This document shows positions 45,291-51,981 of a DNA stretch of 64,000 nt, one piece after another (position 1 is the stretch's first letter; each line of letters starts with the position of its first letter). The DNA is from Sorangium aterium (lineage in GTDB: Bacteria > Myxococcota_A > Polyangia > Polyangiales > Polyangiaceae). The stretch is taken from assembly GCF_028368935.1 (NCBI RefSeq), contig NZ_JAQNDK010000002.1, positions 744,001 to 808,000 of the forward strand, read 5' to 3'. The translations under genes and the position numbers were made by a program. The notes under the pieces are model-generated. The model made no database searches. It was given only the letters and a program-made list of their open reading frames with translations, and was not told the origin of the DNA.

Positions 45291-46343
45291 GTGTTCCACG
45301 AAAAGAAAGCCGTCAGGCGCTTCCATGTCTTCTGCTTGCTCTCGAGCGTCGCGATGCTGGCGTGCGGCGAGGAGAGCGGCGGAGCGGCGCAAGCCGCGGG
45401 CGCGGGCAGCTCGAGCGTGTCAGCCGTCAGCGGGGCGTCGGCCAGCGTGACCGCTGGGTCGGGTGGCGCTGCCAGCGGCAGCGGCGGCGCCGACGTGAGC
45501 GACGGTGGAATGGGCGGAGCGGGCGGAGCAGGTGACGGCGGCACGGGCGGGGCAGGTGACGGAGGCGCTGGAGCGGGCGGAGCCGGCGGCTCGCCGCTCC
45601 CGCCGATCACGGATTACTCTGCCGAGGGGCCGTTCGCGACGACCGTGGAGCGGAACGCGGGGCCCAGCGGAAACCACACGATCTTCAGGCCCGAACGCCT
45701 GGGTGAGAACGGCTTCTTGCATGCGCCGATCAGCTTTGGTCCCGGGATCAATACGCAGGTGACCGCCTACACGGCTCTCCTGTCGAACTTCGCTTCTCAC
45801 GGCTTCGTGGTGGTCGGCGCCAACCTCCTCACGGGCGGCCCCAACGCCCCGAACAACCTCGCGGCCATGCGCGAGGGGCTCGACTGGATCATCGCGCAAA
45901 ACAGCAAGGCGGGCAGCATCTACGAGGGCAAGATCGACGTGCGCCATGCCGTCTCCATGGGCTACTCGGTCGGCGGCACCGCCGCCGTGGAGCTCGGCGG
46001 CCATGAGGCCGTGGCCACCGTCGTCTCCATCCACGGCCACATCGCGACTGCCGCCCTGCACGGGCCCATGCTGCAGACCAGCGGAACGCAGGACACGGTC
46101 GGGCTTCCGATGCAGCAAAAGACGTACGACATGTCCCAGACCCAGACGTTCCTGGCGACGGTGATGGGCGCGGATCACGGGTACATCACGCGCGACGTGG
46201 GAGGCGTCCAGCGGCCGGCGATCGTGGCTTGGCTGCGTTACTGGATCTACAATGACACCGGTGGGAAGCACTATTTCTACGGTGATGATTGCGTGATGTG
46301 CACCTCGCCCTGGGTGAATCCCCAGCGCAAGAACTGGGAATGA
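45291..46343 (+). CDS. Cutinase/PET-hydrolase-like alpha/beta-hydrolase lipoprotein
   Basis: This 350-aa predicted lipoprotein (MLAC, Cys25) starts with GTG after GAGGGG. About 75 residues of Gly/Ala/Ser linker are followed by a hydrolase domain at about 105-335 with the layout of cutinase-like polyesterases: GPSGNHTIFRPERL, then NFASHGFVVVGAN, nucleophile GYSVGG (Ser226), acid Asp268 in SGTQDTVG, and His296 in GADHGYI. A C-terminal Cys pair (DDCVMC) is present. Substrates in this fold range from cutin and acetyl-xylan to polyesters; the shared operator with GH43 favours plant cell-wall esters. Confidence 0.8.
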   Translation: MFHEKKAVRRFHVFCLLSSVAMLACGEESGGAAQAAGAGSSSVSAVSGASASVTAGSGGAASGSGGADVSDGGMGGAGGAGDGGTGGAGDGGAGAGGAGGSPLPPITDYSAEGPFATTVERNAGPSGNHTIFRPERLGENGFLHAPISFGPGINTQVTAYTALLSNFASHGFVVVGANLLTGGPNAPNNLAAMREGLDWIIAQNSKAGSIYEGKIDVRHAVSMGYSVGGTAAVELGGHEAVATVVSIHGHIATAALHGPMLQTSGTQDTVGLPMQQKTYDMSQTQTFLATVMGADHGYITRDVGGVQRPAIVAWLRYWIYNDTGGKHYFYGDDCVMCTSPWVNPQRKNWE

Positions 46344-46398
46344 CCTCGCGCCGAGAAAGACGCCCTTCCGTGCCGCGCCTGCCTTGTAAAACCCCTTG

Positions 46399-46413
46399 GG
46401 TTGGATGCCAACC
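46399..46413. promoter_or_regulatory. Inverted repeat GGTTGG-ATG-CCAACC before the feruloyl-esterase-like gene
   Basis: A perfect 6+6 inverted repeat with a 3-base centre lies 13 bases upstream of the start codon and just before the GAGGAGAG ribosome site. It may be an operator or an RNA hairpin that affects initiation. Confidence 0.35.
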
Positions 46414-46426
46414 GAGGAGAGCACCC

Positions 46427-47551
46427 ATGTCGTCCATTGTTGGCTCCGTGAGCTCCGATTGCATGCACCGTCACTCTCGTTGGCTGCGGCCGATCTGGGG
46501 CGCCTTGGGCCTCTGCGCCGCGCTCAGCGTCGGCTGTAGCGACGACGCCGACGGCGGCGGATCATCCGCCGGTGAGACCTCCGCGAGCGGCTCCGGCGGT
46601 GGCGCTGCTTCCGGTAGCACGAGCAGCGGCACTACCTCCGGCAGCAACGGGGCGACCGCGGGCTCGGGTGGAGCGGACTCGGGTGGAGCGGGCTCGGGTG
46701 GAGCGGACTCGGGTGGCGCCGGCGGCGCGGGCGGTGCCGGCACAGCCGGGGCCGGCGGCGCGGGCGGTGCCAGCACAGCCGGGGCCGGCGGCAGCGGGGG
46801 CGGGGGTGACGCGATGAAGTCCGCCGGCTGCGGCAAGACGCGCACGCTTCAGAACGGCGCTGGCTCCGTGCAGAGCGGCGGGAAGAGCCGCAAATACGCC
46901 CTGCGCGTCCCCGACGATTACGATAACGACCACCCGTACCGGCTCATCCTCTCCTTCCACGGGGCCACGGGCAACAGCGGCCAAGTTGCGCCCTCGTACT
47001 TCGGGCTCTGGTCGCTCTCCGAGGGGAGCACCATCTTCATCGCGCCCGACGCCGTCGGCGGGATCTGGTCGGCCGGCGAGGATGTGACCTTCGTCGACGA
47101 CATCCTCAAGCAGGTCACGGGCGATCTCTGCATCGACACCTCGCGCATCGAGCTCGAAGGCTTCAGCCAGGGAGGTGCCATGGCGTGGACGCTGGCCTGC
47201 GCGCGTCCGGACGTTTACCGCGCCGCGGTGGTCCACTCCGGCGGCGGTCTCGCCCGGCCCGCGAGCTGCCAGCCGGTCGCCTTCATGTCTTCGCTCGGCC
47301 AGCAGGAGAGCGGCGGGGCCGGACAGACCTCCAACAGCGATTTCTTCGCCAAGCAAAATGGATGCACGGTGGAGTCCCTGGCCAAGGCGCCCAGAGGCGG
47401 CCACGCCTGCTCGGACTACAAGGGATGCTCCGAGGGGAATCCCACCCGCTGGTGTGATTACGACGGCGGTCATACGCCGTCGCCGAACGACGCCGGGCAG
47501 AACATGTCGTGGATGCCCCAGGAAGTCTGGACCTTCCTGAGCCAATTCTAG
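46427..47551 (+). CDS. Feruloyl-esterase/PHB-depolymerase-like (CE1 type) lipoprotein
   Basis: This 374-aa protein has a signal with lipobox SVGC, a Gly/Ser/Ala-rich linker of about 95 residues, and an alpha/beta-hydrolase domain of the CE1/LpqC type. It shows CGKTRTL at the start, PYRLILSFHGATGN (oxyanion loop), nucleophile EGFSQGGAMAW (Ser247), and GCSEGNPTRWCDYDGGHTPSPN holding the candidate catalytic His and a Cys pair. Such enzymes remove ferulate from arabinoxylan. It starts 83 bases after the cutinase-like gene and is probably co-transcribed from the 44985 promoter. Its TAG stop overlaps the first bases of the 127-bp repeat. Confidence 0.85.
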   Translation: MSSIVGSVSSDCMHRHSRWLRPIWGALGLCAALSVGCSDDADGGGSSAGETSASGSGGGAASGSTSSGTTSGSNGATAGSGGADSGGAGSGGADSGGAGGAGGAGTAGAGGAGGASTAGAGGSGGGGDAMKSAGCGKTRTLQNGAGSVQSGGKSRKYALRVPDDYDNDHPYRLILSFHGATGNSGQVAPSYFGLWSLSEGSTIFIAPDAVGGIWSAGEDVTFVDDILKQVTGDLCIDTSRIELEGFSQGGAMAWTLACARPDVYRAAVVHSGGGLARPASCQPVAFMSSLGQQESGGAGQTSNSDFFAKQNGCTVESLAKAPRGGHACSDYKGCSEGNPTRWCDYDGGHTPSPNDAGQNMSWMPQEVWTFLSQF

Positions 47552-47676
47552 AGCGGCGGTCACCCGCTTCGGATACGGGCCCACCTCGGCGTTTTCGGTG
47601 CTCAGCGCACGGGAGTGCGCTTGCGCGCCGAAAACGCCGATCTGGGCCCGTCTCCTGTGCGGGAGACCGCCGCTCT
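47550..47676. repeat. 127-bp palindromic repeat, copy 1
   Basis: The arms AGAGCGGCGGTCACCCGC and GCGGGAGACCGCCGCTCT, a second stem GGCGTTTTCGG / CCGAAAACGCC with a GGGCCC on each side, and an inner GCGCAC / GTGCGC hairpin nest into one long cruciform. It matches copy 2 (50648-50774) at 123 of 127 bases. It begins inside the TAG stop of the feruloyl-esterase-like gene. The rest of the 383-bp gap to 47934 shows only a short upstream region of the RsbR gene. Confidence 0.9.
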
Positions 47677-47934
47677 GCTGCGCGCGAGGGCAGCGCGCGA
47701 GGGCAGCGGAGGGGGCCGGCTGCCTCGCCGACGTACAGCATCAGTACCAAGCTCGATGCGCCCGCTCGCGGCACGACCCCATCCACGATGGGAACCGTGC
47801 AGCCCGCGCCCATCCCGTCGAATAGGGAATGTCTCGATGGGCAGCATCGTAGTGTGCCGGCGTACGGATCTTGCGTACATCTTCGGGGATGTCAATCTTG
47901 CAACCCCGAGCATGCTGTGGATACCGTCCGGCCA

Positions 47935-49275
47935 ATGGCGGATGAGGCGTTGGAGGAGATCGGGCGGCTCAGGGCAGAGATCGCGGCGCTGCACGCCCGC
48001 GTCGAGGAGCTGGAGAGCGCGCTGGCGGAGCGGTCGAGCGGCGGCGCGGCCGAGGGAGCGGCGCAGGCCGGCGCGGCGGGCGCGGACGTTCACGCCGCCT
48101 TCGGCGCGCTCGCGTGGCTGCTCACGCCGGCGCCGGCGCTGATCCGCTGGAGCCCCGACGGCACGGTGACGCGCTGGAACGATGGCGCCGAACGTGTTTT
48201 CGGCTGGAGCGAGGGCGAGGCCGTCGGGCGCAGGCTCTCCGAGCTCGTGGGCGCAGATCCCGTGTCCCCGGACGCGGTGCGTGCGCTCCTGCTCGACTGG
48301 ACGGAGAACCGGTTCGCCTCGGCCACGAGCGAGGGCACGACGAGAGACGGGCAGGCGCGCCTCTTCCGGTGGACCCACGCGGTGCTGCGCGACGACAGCG
48401 GCGGCGCGCGTGAGATCGCGGCGATCGTCGAGGATGCCGGCGACCCGCCGTGGAGGGAGCACGTGCTGCTCGGGCGGCTCCAGCTGCTCCTTCAGCTGCT
48501 GGACCACTCGCGCAATTCCATCTTCGTCAAGGACACCGAAGGGCGCTATGTCTTCGTCAACCGAGCTCACGCCGAGGTCCTCCAGCGGCACGTGTTCGAG
48601 GTCATCGGCAAGGATGAGGTCGAGTTGAGCCCCCTGGCCCCCGAGGCCATCGAGGACCTCTTGGCGAGAGAGCGTCACGTGATGGCCGGGGGGAAGGCGA
48701 TGCAGTACGAAGAGAGCCTGCTGCTCGGCGACACGAGCATTCATTTCTCCACCGTCAAGTTCCCGATCCTCGACGGACGCGGCGAGCCGGTCGGGCTCGG
48801 CGGCGTCGTCACCAACATCACCTCGCTCAGGCATGCGGAGGCCGAGCGGGCCGCGCTGCAGGAGAAGATCATCGTCGCCCAGCAGGCCGCCCTCCGGGAG
48901 CTGTCCACGCCGCTCATCCCGATCGCCGACCGGGTGGTGGCGATGCCGCTCGTAGGGACGATCGACAGCGCGCGCGCAGCGCAGATCATGGAGACGCTGC
49001 TGTCCGGGATCAGCAATCAGAGCGCACACACCGCGATCCTGGACGTCACCGGCGTGCGCGCTGTCGACGAGCACGTCGCCGATGCCCTGACGCGGACCGC
49101 GCGCGCCGCCCAGCTGCTCGGCACGCGCGTGGTGCTCACCGGCGTGCGCCCGGAGGTGGCGCAGACGCTGATCACCCTCGGCGCGGATCTGTCCGGTATC
49201 ACCACGCTGGGTACCCTGCAAAGCGGCATCGCGCACGCCCTCCGCCACCCGGGACACCAGCGGTCAGCAGGCTGA
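47935..49275 (+). CDS. Stressosome-type RsbR protein (two PAS domains and STAS)
   Basis: This 446-aa protein has an N-terminal coiled coil (about 5-30), PAS domain 1 (about 55-155; LIRWSPDGTVTRWNDGAERVFGW), PAS domain 2 (about 175-290; NSIFVKDTEGRYVFVNRA), and a STAS domain (about 320-440; RVVAMPLVGTIDSARAAQIMETLLSGI, ILDVTGVRAVDEHVADAL). RsbR proteins bind RsbS and RsbT kinase to sense stress. The first regulatory Thr (VDT in RsbRA) is Glu379 here, while the second (AQT) is Thr411. No RsbS or RsbT gene is nearby. There is no strong ribosome site; the start is placed at the coiled-coil Met. Confidence 0.88.
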   Translation: MADEALEEIGRLRAEIAALHARVEELESALAERSSGGAAEGAAQAGAAGADVHAAFGALAWLLTPAPALIRWSPDGTVTRWNDGAERVFGWSEGEAVGRRLSELVGADPVSPDAVRALLLDWTENRFASATSEGTTRDGQARLFRWTHAVLRDDSGGAREIAAIVEDAGDPPWREHVLLGRLQLLLQLLDHSRNSIFVKDTEGRYVFVNRAHAEVLQRHVFEVIGKDEVELSPLAPEAIEDLLARERHVMAGGKAMQYEESLLLGDTSIHFSTVKFPILDGRGEPVGLGGVVTNITSLRHAEAERAALQEKIIVAQQAALRELSTPLIPIADRVVAMPLVGTIDSARAAQIMETLLSGISNQSAHTAILDVTGVRAVDEHVADALTRTARAAQLLGTRVVLTGVRPEVAQTLITLGADLSGITTLGTLQSGIAHALRHPGHQRSAG

Positions 49276-49383
49276 ACCCGTCTGAAAGAGCAGAAGCTCG
49301 GACCGCCTGTCAGCCGTGTTCTTCGTCAAGCGGCGGCGGGCTCCTACCAGCGCCCGACGGATCGGTTACGTTGTCAGGACCCC

Positions 49384-50649
49384 ATGACGATCGACACCTC
49401 TCCCGACGCGCCCATCCCGTCGGTGCTGTCGAAGCTCGACGAGATCCGGCGGCGCATGGCCTCCCACACCGATCGGGACGACGAGCGGCGGATCCTGGAG
49501 ATCCTCGCGGGATCGACCGCCATCGAGCTCGACCAGCTGCTCCTCCAGCTCGATCTGCCCGCCCTGCTCGGAGACATCGACGATCGCCTCATCGGCCCCG
49601 ACAACCGCACGGCGCTGCTCGAGCTCCTGACCGCCGAGCGCCTCGGTGATCTCGGGATCCCGGCGCGCGCGGCGCTCGCCTCGGCGCTGCAGCGCGGCCG
49701 CACGGGCAGCCTCGACGAGCAGGCGCTGCGCCGCCTCTGGCTCGGCACGCGCGGCGCGGACGTCACGCGGCTCAAGAACGCGCTCGACGGCCGGGGTGGC
49801 TACCGCGACCTTCACCAGCTCTTCTACCACGATATCGACGATGACGCGTTGCGCGAGGAGCTCCTCGCGCACTTCGCGCGGGAGGCGGTCTCGGCGTCTG
49901 ACGCTCTCTCTGCTTCAGGTTCCGTGTCGGTGCGCGAGGTGAAGATCCTCTCCGATATCGACGACACGTTCTATGCGAACTGGAAGGACGCCCGGTACCC
50001 GAAGAAGACCGTCTATCCCGGCGTCCTGCAGTTCTATGCGGAGCTCGACCGCGGCCCTGGCCCCACGCCCGGGCGGGCCGGCGATCTGACGTTCGTCACC
50101 GCCCGCCCCGGCGATCGCCTCGGCCTCGTCGAGGACGCGACGATCAAGGCGCTCGCCGAGCGCGGTCAGCTCACCGCCAACGTGCTCACGGGCTCGTTCA
50201 CCCGCCTCATCGGCAACCGCACGATCGCGGAGAAGAAGCTCGAGAACTTCCTCGAGTACCGGCGGCTGTACCCGGAGTACGATTTCGTCTTCGTCGGCGA
50301 CAGCGGGCAGGGCGATATCCACTTCGGCCAGCGCATGCTCGAGCTCGCCTCGGAGGCGGTGAGAGCGGTCTTCATCCACGACGTGGTCGCGACACCCGAT
50401 CTCACGCGGAGGGAGCTCGCGACCTCGGGCGTTCACCTGTTCGATACGTACATCGGCGCCGCGCTCACGGCCCTCGAGCGCGGCCTCCTCGGCCCCGAGG
50501 GCGCGGCGCGCGTGGCCGAGGCCGCGATTGCGGCGTTCGCCGCGATCCCGTTCCCGTCGCAGGCGGACCAGGAGGCGCGCCGCCGCGAGGTGGCGCGCGA
50601 CGTCGCCCGGCTGAACGAGGCGCTACCTTCGTCGCTGCACATCCATTAG
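49384..50649 (+). CDS. App1-like (DUF2183) phosphatidate phosphatase-type protein
   Basis: This 421-aa protein has a helical N-terminal part (about 1-175) and a HAD-like catalytic domain (about 180-385). The hallmark SDIDDT at 190-195, TARPGDR for motif II and FVGDSGQGDIHFG for motif IV define the App1 type, whose yeast founder dephosphorylates phosphatidate. The exact substrate in bacteria is not established. The start follows a short AGGA. The stop TAG overlaps the second 127-bp repeat. It lies 108 bases after the RsbR gene. Confidence 0.85.
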   Translation: MTIDTSPDAPIPSVLSKLDEIRRRMASHTDRDDERRILEILAGSTAIELDQLLLQLDLPALLGDIDDRLIGPDNRTALLELLTAERLGDLGIPARAALASALQRGRTGSLDEQALRRLWLGTRGADVTRLKNALDGRGGYRDLHQLFYHDIDDDALREELLAHFAREAVSASDALSASGSVSVREVKILSDIDDTFYANWKDARYPKKTVYPGVLQFYAELDRGPGPTPGRAGDLTFVTARPGDRLGLVEDATIKALAERGQLTANVLTGSFTRLIGNRTIAEKKLENFLEYRRLYPEYDFVFVGDSGQGDIHFGQRMLELASEAVRAVFIHDVVATPDLTRRELATSGVHLFDTYIGAALTALERGLLGPEGAARVAEAAIAAFAAIPFPSQADQEARRREVARDVARLNEALPSSLHIH

Positions 50650-50774
50650 AGCGACGGTCACCCGCTTCGGATACGGGCCCACCTCGACGTTTTCGGTGCT
50701 CAGCGCACCGGAGTGCGCTTGCGCGCCGAAAACGCCGATCTGGGCCCGTCTCCTGTGCGGGTGACCGCCGCTCT
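50648..50774. repeat. 127-bp palindromic repeat, copy 2
   Basis: The same element as at 47550-47676, in the same orientation, with four base differences. One of them (GCGGGTGACC) makes the outer stem of this copy a closer match to its own left arm. It begins in the TAG stop of the App1-like gene and ends 35 bases before the stop of the convergent aminotransferase, so it could also act as a terminator. Confidence 0.9.
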
Positions 50775-50808
50775 GCTCGGCATGGTGCAGAGGTAGGCGG
50801 AAAGCGCT

Positions 50809-51981
50809 CTAGGCCTCGGTGAGCGCGGCGACGAAGCGGTCGACCTCGGATTCGTCGTTGTAATAATGGACCGAGGCGCGCACCAGATCGGGAATCCCGC
50901 GATCCTCGAAGTCGAGCAGCGTCCCGGCGGCGGTCGACACGCTGACGTGGATCGCCTGAGCGCCGAGCCGCGCCTTGATGGCCGCGGCGTCCTCGCCTGC
51001 CCTGGTGAAGGTCACGATGCCGCAGCGCCGCTCGCCGAGGTCGCGCACGGTGACCCCAGGGACCTCGGAGAGCCGCGCGCGCAGGCGCTCGGCCAGCGCA
51101 CCTACGCGGTCGCGGATCGCCGGCAGACCCAGCCGGAGCGCATACTCCGCGGCCGCGCCGAGCCCGAGCCGGCCGGCGACGTAGCTCTCCCAGTTCTCGA
51201 ACCGCCGGGCGTCGGGCCGCAGCTCGTAGCGGTCCGGCGCCGTCCAGCGGGCCGCGTGGAGATCGAGGAACGGCGGCTCCAGCCGGTCGAGCAGCGCGCG
51301 CCGGACATAGAGAAAGCCGGTGCCGCGCGGCCCGCGCAGGTACTTGCGCCCCGTCGCCGACAGGAGATCGCAGCCGATCGCCTCGACGTCGAGCGGCAGC
51401 TGCCCCACCGACTGGCAGGCATCGAGCAGGAAGGGCACGCCCGCGGACCGGGCGCGGCGGCCTATCTCCTCCGCCGGGTTGACCAGCCCGCCGTTCGTGG
51501 GGACGTGGGTGATGGCGATCAGCTTGACCCGCTCGTCGATCAGGCGATCGAGCGCGGGCAGCGACACCGCGCCGCGCTCGTCGCTCGGGATCGGGACGAT
51601 CTCCGCGCCGGTGCGCCGCGCGACCTGCAGGAACGCGATGTAGTTCGAGGCGTACTCGGTCCGCGCGGTCAGGATGCGATCCCCCGGGCCGAAGCGGAGG
51701 GAGTAGAACGCCATGTCCCAGGCGCGCGTGGCGTTCTCGACAAGCGCGATCTCGTCGGGCGCCGCGCCGATGAGCCGGGCGATCGAGCCGTAGACCGCCT
51801 CGAGCCGCGCGCCCGCCTCCTCCTCGGCCTCGTAGCCGCCGACGGCCGCCTCGCGGCGCAGGTGCTCGACCACCGTGTCGACCACCACGGCGGGAGGCAG
51901 CGAGGAACCGGCGTTGTTGAAGTGCAGGACGCCGGCGCAGGCCGGGGTGTCGCGGCGCAGCGCGGCGATATCCATCGTCAT
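50809..51981 (-). CDS. Class V aminotransferase (IPN-epimerase/cysteine-desulfurase-like)
   Basis: This 390-aa PLP enzyme has an N-terminal HFNNAGSSLPP, PLP-contact residues in LLDACQSVGQLPLDV (Asp187, Gln190), and the Schiff-base Lys213 in SATGRKYLRGPRG. Family members include isopenicillin N epimerase-like, EgtE-like and SufS-like enzymes; this one lacks a clear active-site Cys of SufS in the usual loop. The substrate is unknown. GAGGAG lies 7 bases before the ATG at 51981. It is followed upstream on the same strand by an AraC regulator gene 99 bases away. Confidence 0.85.
   Translation of the reverse strand: MTMDIAALRRDTPACAGVLHFNNAGSSLPPAVVVDTVVEHLRREAAVGGYEAEEEAGARLEAVYGSIARLIGAAPDEIALVENATRAWDMAFYSLRFGPGDRILTARTEYASNYIAFLQVARRTGAEIVPIPSDERGAVSLPALDRLIDERVKLIAITHVPTNGGLVNPAEEIGRRARSAGVPFLLDACQSVGQLPLDVEAIGCDLLSATGRKYLRGPRGTGFLYVRRALLDRLEPPFLDLHAARWTAPDRYELRPDARRFENWESYVAGRLGLGAAAEYALRLGLPAIRDRVGALAERLRARLSEVPGVTVRDLGERRCGIVTFTRAGEDAAAIKARLGAQAIHVSVSTAAGTLLDFEDRGIPDLVRASVHYYNDESEVDRFVAALTEA

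What the first reader, a model, noticed from the sequence alone, without database searches (positions are those of the whole stretch)
47550..50774. A 127-bp highly structured palindrome in two copies, each starting inside the stop codon of a gene
Seen: copies at 47550-47676 and 50648-50774 match at 123 of 127 bases in the same orientation. Each begins with the AG of a TAG stop codon, and each folds as three nested stems (outer AGAGCG/CGCTCT, middle GGCGTTTTCGG/CCGAAAACGCC, inner GCGCAC/GTGCGC). They bracket the RsbR and App1-like genes. Inference: a REP- or MITE-like mobile element with a preference for gene ends, or a dispersed terminator. Several differences fall within the arms.
Basis: partly seen in the sequence, partly recalled or inferred. 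Interest (0 to 1): 0.68.

Follow-up and report, generated by a model that had tools for sequence, protein, structure and literature searches.

The report
Mobile hairpin seated in stop codons
A 125-base DNA palindrome sits in dozens of copies in soil bacteria of the genus Sorangium, mostly starting inside the stop codon of a gene, and distant relatives in other genera keep its tip and its place while its arms differ.

Summary
In detail: the two copies match at 123 of 127 bases and each starts in a TAG stop codon. They belong to a dispersed family. The window's Sorangium genome holds at least 54 intact copies, plus three split by an insertion sequence. All six Sorangium genomes have it; a tip-only model finds relatives in 31 of 183 genomes of the order.

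The element is one long hairpin. Its tip is conserved across genera; its arms vary, mostly with pairing kept.

Of 155 distinct Sorangium copies, 145 follow a gene read towards them. In 105 the stop forms exactly at the edge (TA|G 66, T|GA 39); in 137 it lies within -10..+4. In another genus 11 of 12 agree. The next gene is mostly convergent (83 to 9, 63 unclear).

It moves or has moved: 10 of 51 own copies have an orthologous copy in another genome; for 14 of the others, 0 of 56 orthologous gene ends carry one.

I read it as a REP/MITE-like element that seats in stop codons, probably at TA/CTAG, leaving a hairpin at the mRNA end. It is not a classical REP: the REP enzyme family (Y1_Tnp) was not found in 10 of 10 carrier genomes. 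Mobiliser and RNA effect are undetermined.

The parts
47549..47551 (+). TAG stop of the upstream gene (ORF 46289-47551); its AG is the first two bases of the element
47550..47676 (+). copy 1 of the palindromic element (GAGCG...CGCTC core is 47551-47675, 125 bp)
47598..47628 (+). conserved tip of copy 1: GTGCTC, 7-bp apical stem, 4-base loop (47611-47614), TGCGCGC
50647..50649 (+). TAG stop of the APP1-like gene (ORF 49384-50649)
50648..50774 (+). copy 2 of the palindromic element
50696..50726 (+). conserved tip of copy 2, placed by the register of copy 1 (no gaps between the copies)
50775..50811 (+). tail of copy 2 (GCTCGGCATGGTGCAGAGGTAGGCGGAAAGCGCTCTA), ending in the stop codon (CTA, read TAG on the - strand) of the convergent gene 50809-51981

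Best explanation
A short palindromic mobile element of REP/MITE type, without a gene of its own. Shown: it is dispersed, present at many sites that other species have empty, seated at stop codons in one main orientation, with a conserved hairpin tip and arms that vary mostly as pairs. Inferred: it enters at a TA, best in CTAG, and its first base G (or GA) rebuilds the stop (TA|G or T|GA), so the host protein usually keeps its end. CTAG is very rare in the coding sequence of this 72% GC genome and concentrated at stops, which explains much of the seat but not all of it. Also inferred: because the whole element pairs with itself, the mRNA of the upstream gene then ends in a ~60-bp hairpin that starts in the stop codon, mostly between convergent genes. 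There it most likely blocks read-through or 3' decay, or slows the terminating ribosome. The mobilising enzyme is unknown; the conserved tip with free arms suggests that the folded tip is what is recognised.
For: Copies: at least 54 intact in the own genome; 6 of 6 Sorangium genomes; all 104 stretches of genome contigs that hold an exact 40-base core are Sorangium. Mobility: for 14 own copies, 0 of 56 orthologous ends in five other genomes carry the element, with one 15-base relic in L279; window site 1 and site 2 each have 3 orthologous ends without it. Seat: 155 distinct copies, 145 with + strand coding upstream, TAG at -2 in 66, TGA at -1 in 39, 137 within -10..+4. Other strong hairpins behind stops (106 ends) show no peak at the stop. 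Other genus G165, found with a tip-only model: 11 of 12, 7 of them exactly TA|G; TA on both sides in 7 of 12. Native stop at the empty ends: TAG in 27 of 51 that have a stop there, against 56 of 314 other gene ends. CTAG: 30 coding, 86 intergenic, 29 at stops. In L002 the own gene ends at the element while three orthologues read on. Paired changes in the own genome: 33 both-side changes against 4.6 in shuffles.
Against: CTAG availability explains only part of the seat: 29 of 115 non-coding CTAG are at stops. It explains no orientation, yet the upstream coding strand is 142 + to 6 - (7 unclear). The T|GA class does not come from TA directly; L021 and its four orthologues all have TGA. Only 8 of 155 Sorangium palindromes have TA straight after them; 27 have a TA end in the tail, by a pattern I wrote after seeing the data (3 of 154 control stretches). 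So a clean target duplication is not shown. No enzyme found: no Y1_Tnp, and IS630-type DDE_3 was not found in GT47, which has many copies, and shares no ends with the element. At least 10 of 51 own copies are shared with another species, so a good part is old and not moving now. Some empty ends already read TAGAGCG (2 of 3 at site 1; 2 of 26 TAG ends, against 72 of 3742 TAG elsewhere): target preference or relics, not resolved.
Confidence: 0.6

Rival explanations
1. A functional gene-end RNA element (bidirectional terminator or 3'-end protector) that selection keeps at stop codons. Dispersal is secondary; the hairpin is the point.
For: Main orientation 142:6. Next gene convergent 83, tandem 9, unclear 63 of 155; in a stricter subset of 60 ends 34, 1 and 25, against 97, 164 and 53 of 314 other ends (Fisher p 1e-12, ends not all independent). 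Paired changes in the own genome and, with 0 or 1 mismatch in four of five, between orthologous copies of one gene. Seat and tip kept across genera. Host genes include cysteinyl-tRNA synthetase and DNA polymerase I. 10 of 51 own copies shared between species.
Against: No T-run and no terminator-like call at either copy. Only some tens of genes per genome have it, with no common function in the 29 host proteins searched. Many orthologous genes do without it (0 of 56, for copies not already known to be shared). A terminator would not need a conserved tip sequence.
Confidence: 0.35
2. The paired changes in the arms come from copying within the palindrome (template switching), not from selection on a fold.
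For: Both arms change together in the outer stem of five orthologous copies. Long palindromes are known substrates for such correction (recalled).
Against: Mismatches inside the core stay the same in nearly all of the 51 own copies, where correction should erase them.
Confidence: 0.35
3. A classical REP family moved by a RAYT (Y1) transposase.
For: REP ends that supply TAG stops, placement downstream of genes and between convergent or unidirectional genes are described for REPs (PMC3733652, passages).
Against: Y1_Tnp in 0 of 10 carrier genomes, while the control search finds it in 5 of 14 known genomes. The element is 121-133 bp against 20-40 bp for REPs (abstract of PMC3733652 in the listing), and begins with TA|GAG, not GTAG.
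Confidence: 0.08
4. A MITE of an IS630/Tc1-type transposon with TA duplication.
For: TA on both sides in 7 of 12 G165 copies; tail ends in TA in 27 of 155 Sorangium copies against 3 of 154 control stretches, by a pattern written after seeing the data.
Against: DDE_3 not found in GT47, and none of 15 DDE_3 loci in the other four genomes carries the element's core or tip or a matching pair of ends. Ends are not conserved beyond GAGC between Sorangium and G165, and less in other genera, whereas TIR-bound transposases need them (recalled).
Confidence: 0.15

Closest known systems
REP elements (GTAG-tagged, RAYT-associated)
   Same: dispersed palindromes downstream of genes, between convergent or unidirectional genes; ends that often supply the TAG stop (PMC3733652, passages); proximity to stops that can stall ribosomes (PMC12306157, passages)
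   Different: three to six times longer, one main orientation, conserved tip instead of conserved foot, no Y1_Tnp found in carriers
ERIC / RU-1 (enterobacteria)
   Same: 127-bp repeat; MITE-like; acts on mRNA in an orientation-dependent way (PMC2229807, passages); palindromic (recalled)
   Different: unrelated host group; the strict stop-codon seat and tip conservation seen here were not in the passages I read; no sequence comparison made
MITEs with TA duplication (RUP type)
   Same: TA flanks in part of the copies, no gene, inverted ends (PMC2229807, passages)
   Different: arms vary mostly as pairs; no parent IS found
ISRm22 and other IS elements that target REPs
   Same: three IS4-type IS copies sit in the loop of this element, as ISRm22 sits at the axis of REPs (PMC1525189, passages)
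   Different: the IS is a user of the element, not its mobiliser as far as shown; 4-bp duplication equal to the loop in two of three, against 6 bp in ISRm22

Membership tests
REP/RAYT | Y1_Tnp (RAYT) enzyme in the genome | tested here: not met
   0 of 10 carrier genomes, control 5 of 14; four of the ten are listed as 80-89% complete
REP/RAYT | 20-40 bp palindrome with GTAG or CGTC foot | tested here: not met
   121-133 bp, TA|GAGC foot in Sorangium and G165
REP/RAYT | high copy, extragenic, downstream of genes | tested here: met
   at least 54 intact copies; 137 of 155 within -10..+4 of a stop
MITE | terminal inverted repeats, no coding gene, many copies | tested here: met
MITE | target-site duplication | tested here: inconclusive
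   TA both sides in 7 of 12 in G165; left TA 76 of 155, right TA 8 of 155 (tail TA 27 of 155) in Sorangium
MITE | parent transposon with the same ends | tested here: inconclusive
   only DDE_3 (IS630 type) was tested: 15 loci in 4 of 5 genomes, no matching pair of ends; other transposase families not tested
Intrinsic terminator | GC-rich hairpin followed by a T-run | tested here: not met
   hairpin yes, T-run no; not called at either copy
Intrinsic terminator | stops transcription | not testable with these tools
   needs RNA data
Known Rfam family | match at gathering score | tested here: not met
   0 matches in the window

The most novel reading that the evidence does not exclude
A hairpin element that is recognised by its folded tip and cut at a fixed distance from it (about 125 bp in Sorangium, 121-122 bp in 9 of 12 G165 copies), and inserted into stop codons in one orientation by an enzyme that is not of the known REP (Y1) class. 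Gene 3' ends would be its niche, possibly found through the single strand that transcription or termination exposes there.
Probability: 0.18. Interest if true: 0.85.

Novelty: new variant of a known kind. Interest (0 to 1): 0.6.

Why it matters
Dispersed palindromes at gene ends are long known as REPs, but whether they are parasites, terminators or both is still argued (recalled; PMC3733652 and PMC12306157 passages list both kinds of role). Here is a large, easily recognised family in a group of bacteria for which my searches found no report of such elements. Its arms are free to vary and its tip and its seat are not, so the fold, the seat and the enzyme can be separated by experiment. It also offers a natural set of well over 100 stop codons with a ~60-bp hairpin starting in or next to them, useful for asking what such a hairpin does to a terminating ribosome and to read-through between convergent genes.

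Tried and rejected
Local duplication: rejected, flanks differ and there are at least 54 copies. RAYT: not found. IS630 parent: not found. IS4-type transposase as mobiliser: rejected, because it is only in the own genome (3 copies; elsewhere one marginal hit in G004, E 3.3e-4) while all six Sorangium genomes have the element; it uses the loop as target. A general Sorangium habit of hairpins starting at stops: not seen, other strong hairpins are spread from -12 to +49 (a few of those 106 may be parts of this element on the other strand). TAGAGCG as a general motif: not outstanding among TAG words outside the element. A regulon: no common function among 29 host proteins searched of 43 listed, 9 of them without a Pfam match. 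The E 9.6e-4 BLAST hit in G050 (L094) looked like chance. Four 'FILLED' labels came from a loose string test; BLAST of the element against all 56 regions gave only a 15-base relic in L279.

The 155 copies exclude half copies (BLAST span under about 90 bases), copies with less than 60 bases of flank, and duplicates; 40 of them are orthologous in 18 groups, so they are about 133 sites. They come from loci found by similarity or by an exact 40-base core pattern, so diverged copies are under-represented. The 16 copies tested for empty sites were picked by me from those with a clear upstream gene and not among the 10 already seen to be shared, so 0 of 56 is not the rate for all copies. Of 73 matches I fetched 56 (bits 86 or more) and dropped 17 weaker ones; one of the 56 (L247) ends 42 bases after the gene. 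Orthologues were found for 14 of the 16. Native-stop counts are by orthologue: by site, TAG is in the majority at 7 of 14. The alignment A3 places the middle stem imperfectly across genera (helix 1 only 70.5% paired; pairs changed on both sides 8 against 5.7 in shuffles, further pair types below shuffles), so covariation across genera is not shown by that count. R1 was built with the two bases before the hairpin, so it favours TA there slightly; R2 was not. Of the 31 genomes I looked at loci of six besides Sorangium (G064, G029, G006, G013, G165, G138); the rest are matches only. One search stopped with an error after the loci wanted had been printed.

Full report
What is there. The two copies in the window are 127 bp long, match at 123 positions, and begin with the AG of an in-frame TAG. 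Copy 1 folds as one hairpin with small internal loops at -108.5 kcal/mol, far beyond shuffles (z -13). Outside the element the two sites share only the T of the stop on the left and three bases on the right.

Dispersal. The window lies in a 13.5-Mb genome. A covariance model built from 51 own copies finds 108 matches there, which are 54 places hit on both strands; only the best 150 first-look candidates were scored, so this is a lower bound. A short core pattern with one mismatch allowed is found 138 times against 14 for the reversed control. Three further copies are split by an insertion sequence and two are halves. By BLAST all six Sorangium genomes have the element; of the other 53 relatives searched, one has a marginal hit that I take for chance. 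A scan of genome contigs with an exact 40-base core pattern gave 104 stretches, every one titled Sorangium.

Distant relatives. The same model in 60 genomes of the family found weak but clear relatives in four other genera (G064, G029, G006, G013). The 14 places fetched from these all lie at the end of a gene read towards them, with the stop between -7 and +13 of the hairpin base. Their arms differ in sequence yet pair, and the tip is shared: GTGCTC in most, a 7-bp stem ending in GTAC, four loop bases, GTAC, then T(G/C)CGCGC in most. A model of the tip alone (R2), which carries no information on stops, found 31 of 183 genomes of the order at E 1e-4 or better, 30 of them in this family, in 16 genera; E-values are rough. 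In a genus not used for the model (G165; 27 scored matches, 12 examined) 11 of 12 have an in-frame stop at -6 to -2 from GAGC, 7 of them exactly TA|G; one is unclear. TA is on both sides in 7 of 12, and 9 of 12 are 121-122 bp long. Of four places in G138, three show an in-frame stop within the first 25 bases of the fold and one shows none; their edges were not measured further.

The seat in the stop codon. Over 155 distinct Sorangium copies the upstream coding strand points at the element in 145; counting only clear scores it is 142 to 6 with 7 unclear. The in-frame stop is TAG at -2 in 66, TGA at -1 in 39, and within -10..+4 in 137. Other strong hairpins behind stops show no such peak. The next gene is convergent in 83, tandem in 9 and unclear in 63 of the 155. 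In a stricter set of 60 element ends from the window and the named Sorangium loci it is 34, 1 and 25, against 97, 164 and 53 of 314 other ends. In some copies the far end of the element also forms the stop of the convergent gene, as copy 2 does here.

Mobility and age. Ten of 51 own copies have a copy behind the orthologous gene in at least one other genome; one gene carries it in five genomes. From the others I took 16 and searched their last 100 coding bases in five other Sorangium genomes; 56 orthologous ends of 14 copies were fetched. None carries the element; one has a 15-base relic of its left end. The stop at these empty ends is TAG in 27, TGA in 22, TAA in 2, and no stop at that point in 5; TAG makes up 56 of 314 other ends. 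In L002 the own gene stops at the element while three orthologues read on. Each window site is empty in three other Sorangium genomes; at site 2 the matched parts of the two genes are 37 bases apart in the MAG G002 and 172 in the own genome. At some convergent spacers one species has the element behind gene A and another behind gene B, or with the tip turned round in place.

Structure. In the own genome 98.6% of cells pair, with 33 both-side changes against 4.6 in shuffles; they lie in the outer stem and in the tip stem, while the middle stem hardly varies. At the gene with copies in five genomes the outer stem differs in each; it pairs fully in one, with one mismatch in three and with a length difference in one. 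Not every old copy keeps its pairing: L093 does not. Selection on a fold and copying within the palindrome would both give this. The constant mismatches of the core speak somewhat for the former. Across genera the count on the tip alignment is only partly above its controls, because the middle stem is not well aligned.

How it may work. The G+C content is 72%, and CTAG is almost absent from genes (30 in 715 kb) but common at stops (29 in 1.5 kb of stop codons). An element that enters at TA or CTAG and begins with GAG would find stop codons often and leave them working. This accounts for much of the seat, not for the rest of it, and not for the orientation. Either insertion follows transcription, or only copies in this place and orientation persist because the RNA hairpin does something there. 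In E. coli, REPs within 15 bases of a stop can stall ribosomes (PMC12306157, passages; the original study was not read). ERICs change mRNA stability in an orientation-dependent way (PMC2229807, passages). Neither was tested here.

Compared with the known. A survey of REPs reports that GTAG REPs often supply the TAG of neighbouring genes and prefer convergent and unidirectional spacers (PMC3733652, passages). The kind of thing is therefore known. What differs is the length, the main orientation, the conserved tip with free arms, and the absence of the Y1 enzyme in 10 of 10 carrier genomes searched. The Sorangium genome paper, read in passages, mentions only CRISPR repeats under the words searched (PMC3696898). 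Searches of the open PMC library (listings only) showed no report of this element; subscription papers are mostly not held there.

The excluded shared copies, the 83:9 figure, the imperfect pairing of orthologous arms, the dropped matches and the G138 result were added. Confidence went from 0.62 to 0.60 and interest from 0.62 to 0.60, because the empty-site count is for a picked part of the copies.

Noticed in passing
L031, L032, L044 (L099, L101, L102); own genome contigs C1 and C3: An IS of about 1.46 kb with a 461-aa IS4-type transposase (Tnp_DNA_bind, DDE_Tnp_1) sits in the four-base loop of the element in 3 of 3 copies; the 4-bp duplication equals the loop in two, and the third has unlike flanks (AAGA/TCAC). 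Not in the other five Sorangium genomes apart from one marginal hit in G004.
   Followed up: yes
L204 vs L052; L124 vs L195; L176 vs L045: The tip of the element is turned round in place between species while the gene end stays the same, as if the arms had recombined.
   Followed up: partly
L244 600-1100 (So ceGT47): Head-to-tail triplicate of most of the element with a ~105-bp period; L188 of So ce26 also has two copies 96 bp apart.
   Followed up: no
G000 C1:1828413-1828569: A second own-genome stretch 90% identical to the last ~155 bases of the gene before copy 1; the match ends at the same stop codon, and no copy of the element is listed there.
   Followed up: no
L033, L055, L039, L196, L124 right flanks: Right arm plus following bases repeated two or more times in tandem behind several copies.
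   Followed up: no
L038 and L035: Half copies; L038 is a deletion of one side of the tip at a site that is intact in So ce26 and So0157-2.
   Followed up: partly
L207, L208, L252, L261: Empty orthologous gene ends that already read TAGAGCG: either the target resembles the element's end, or they are relics.
   Followed up: partly
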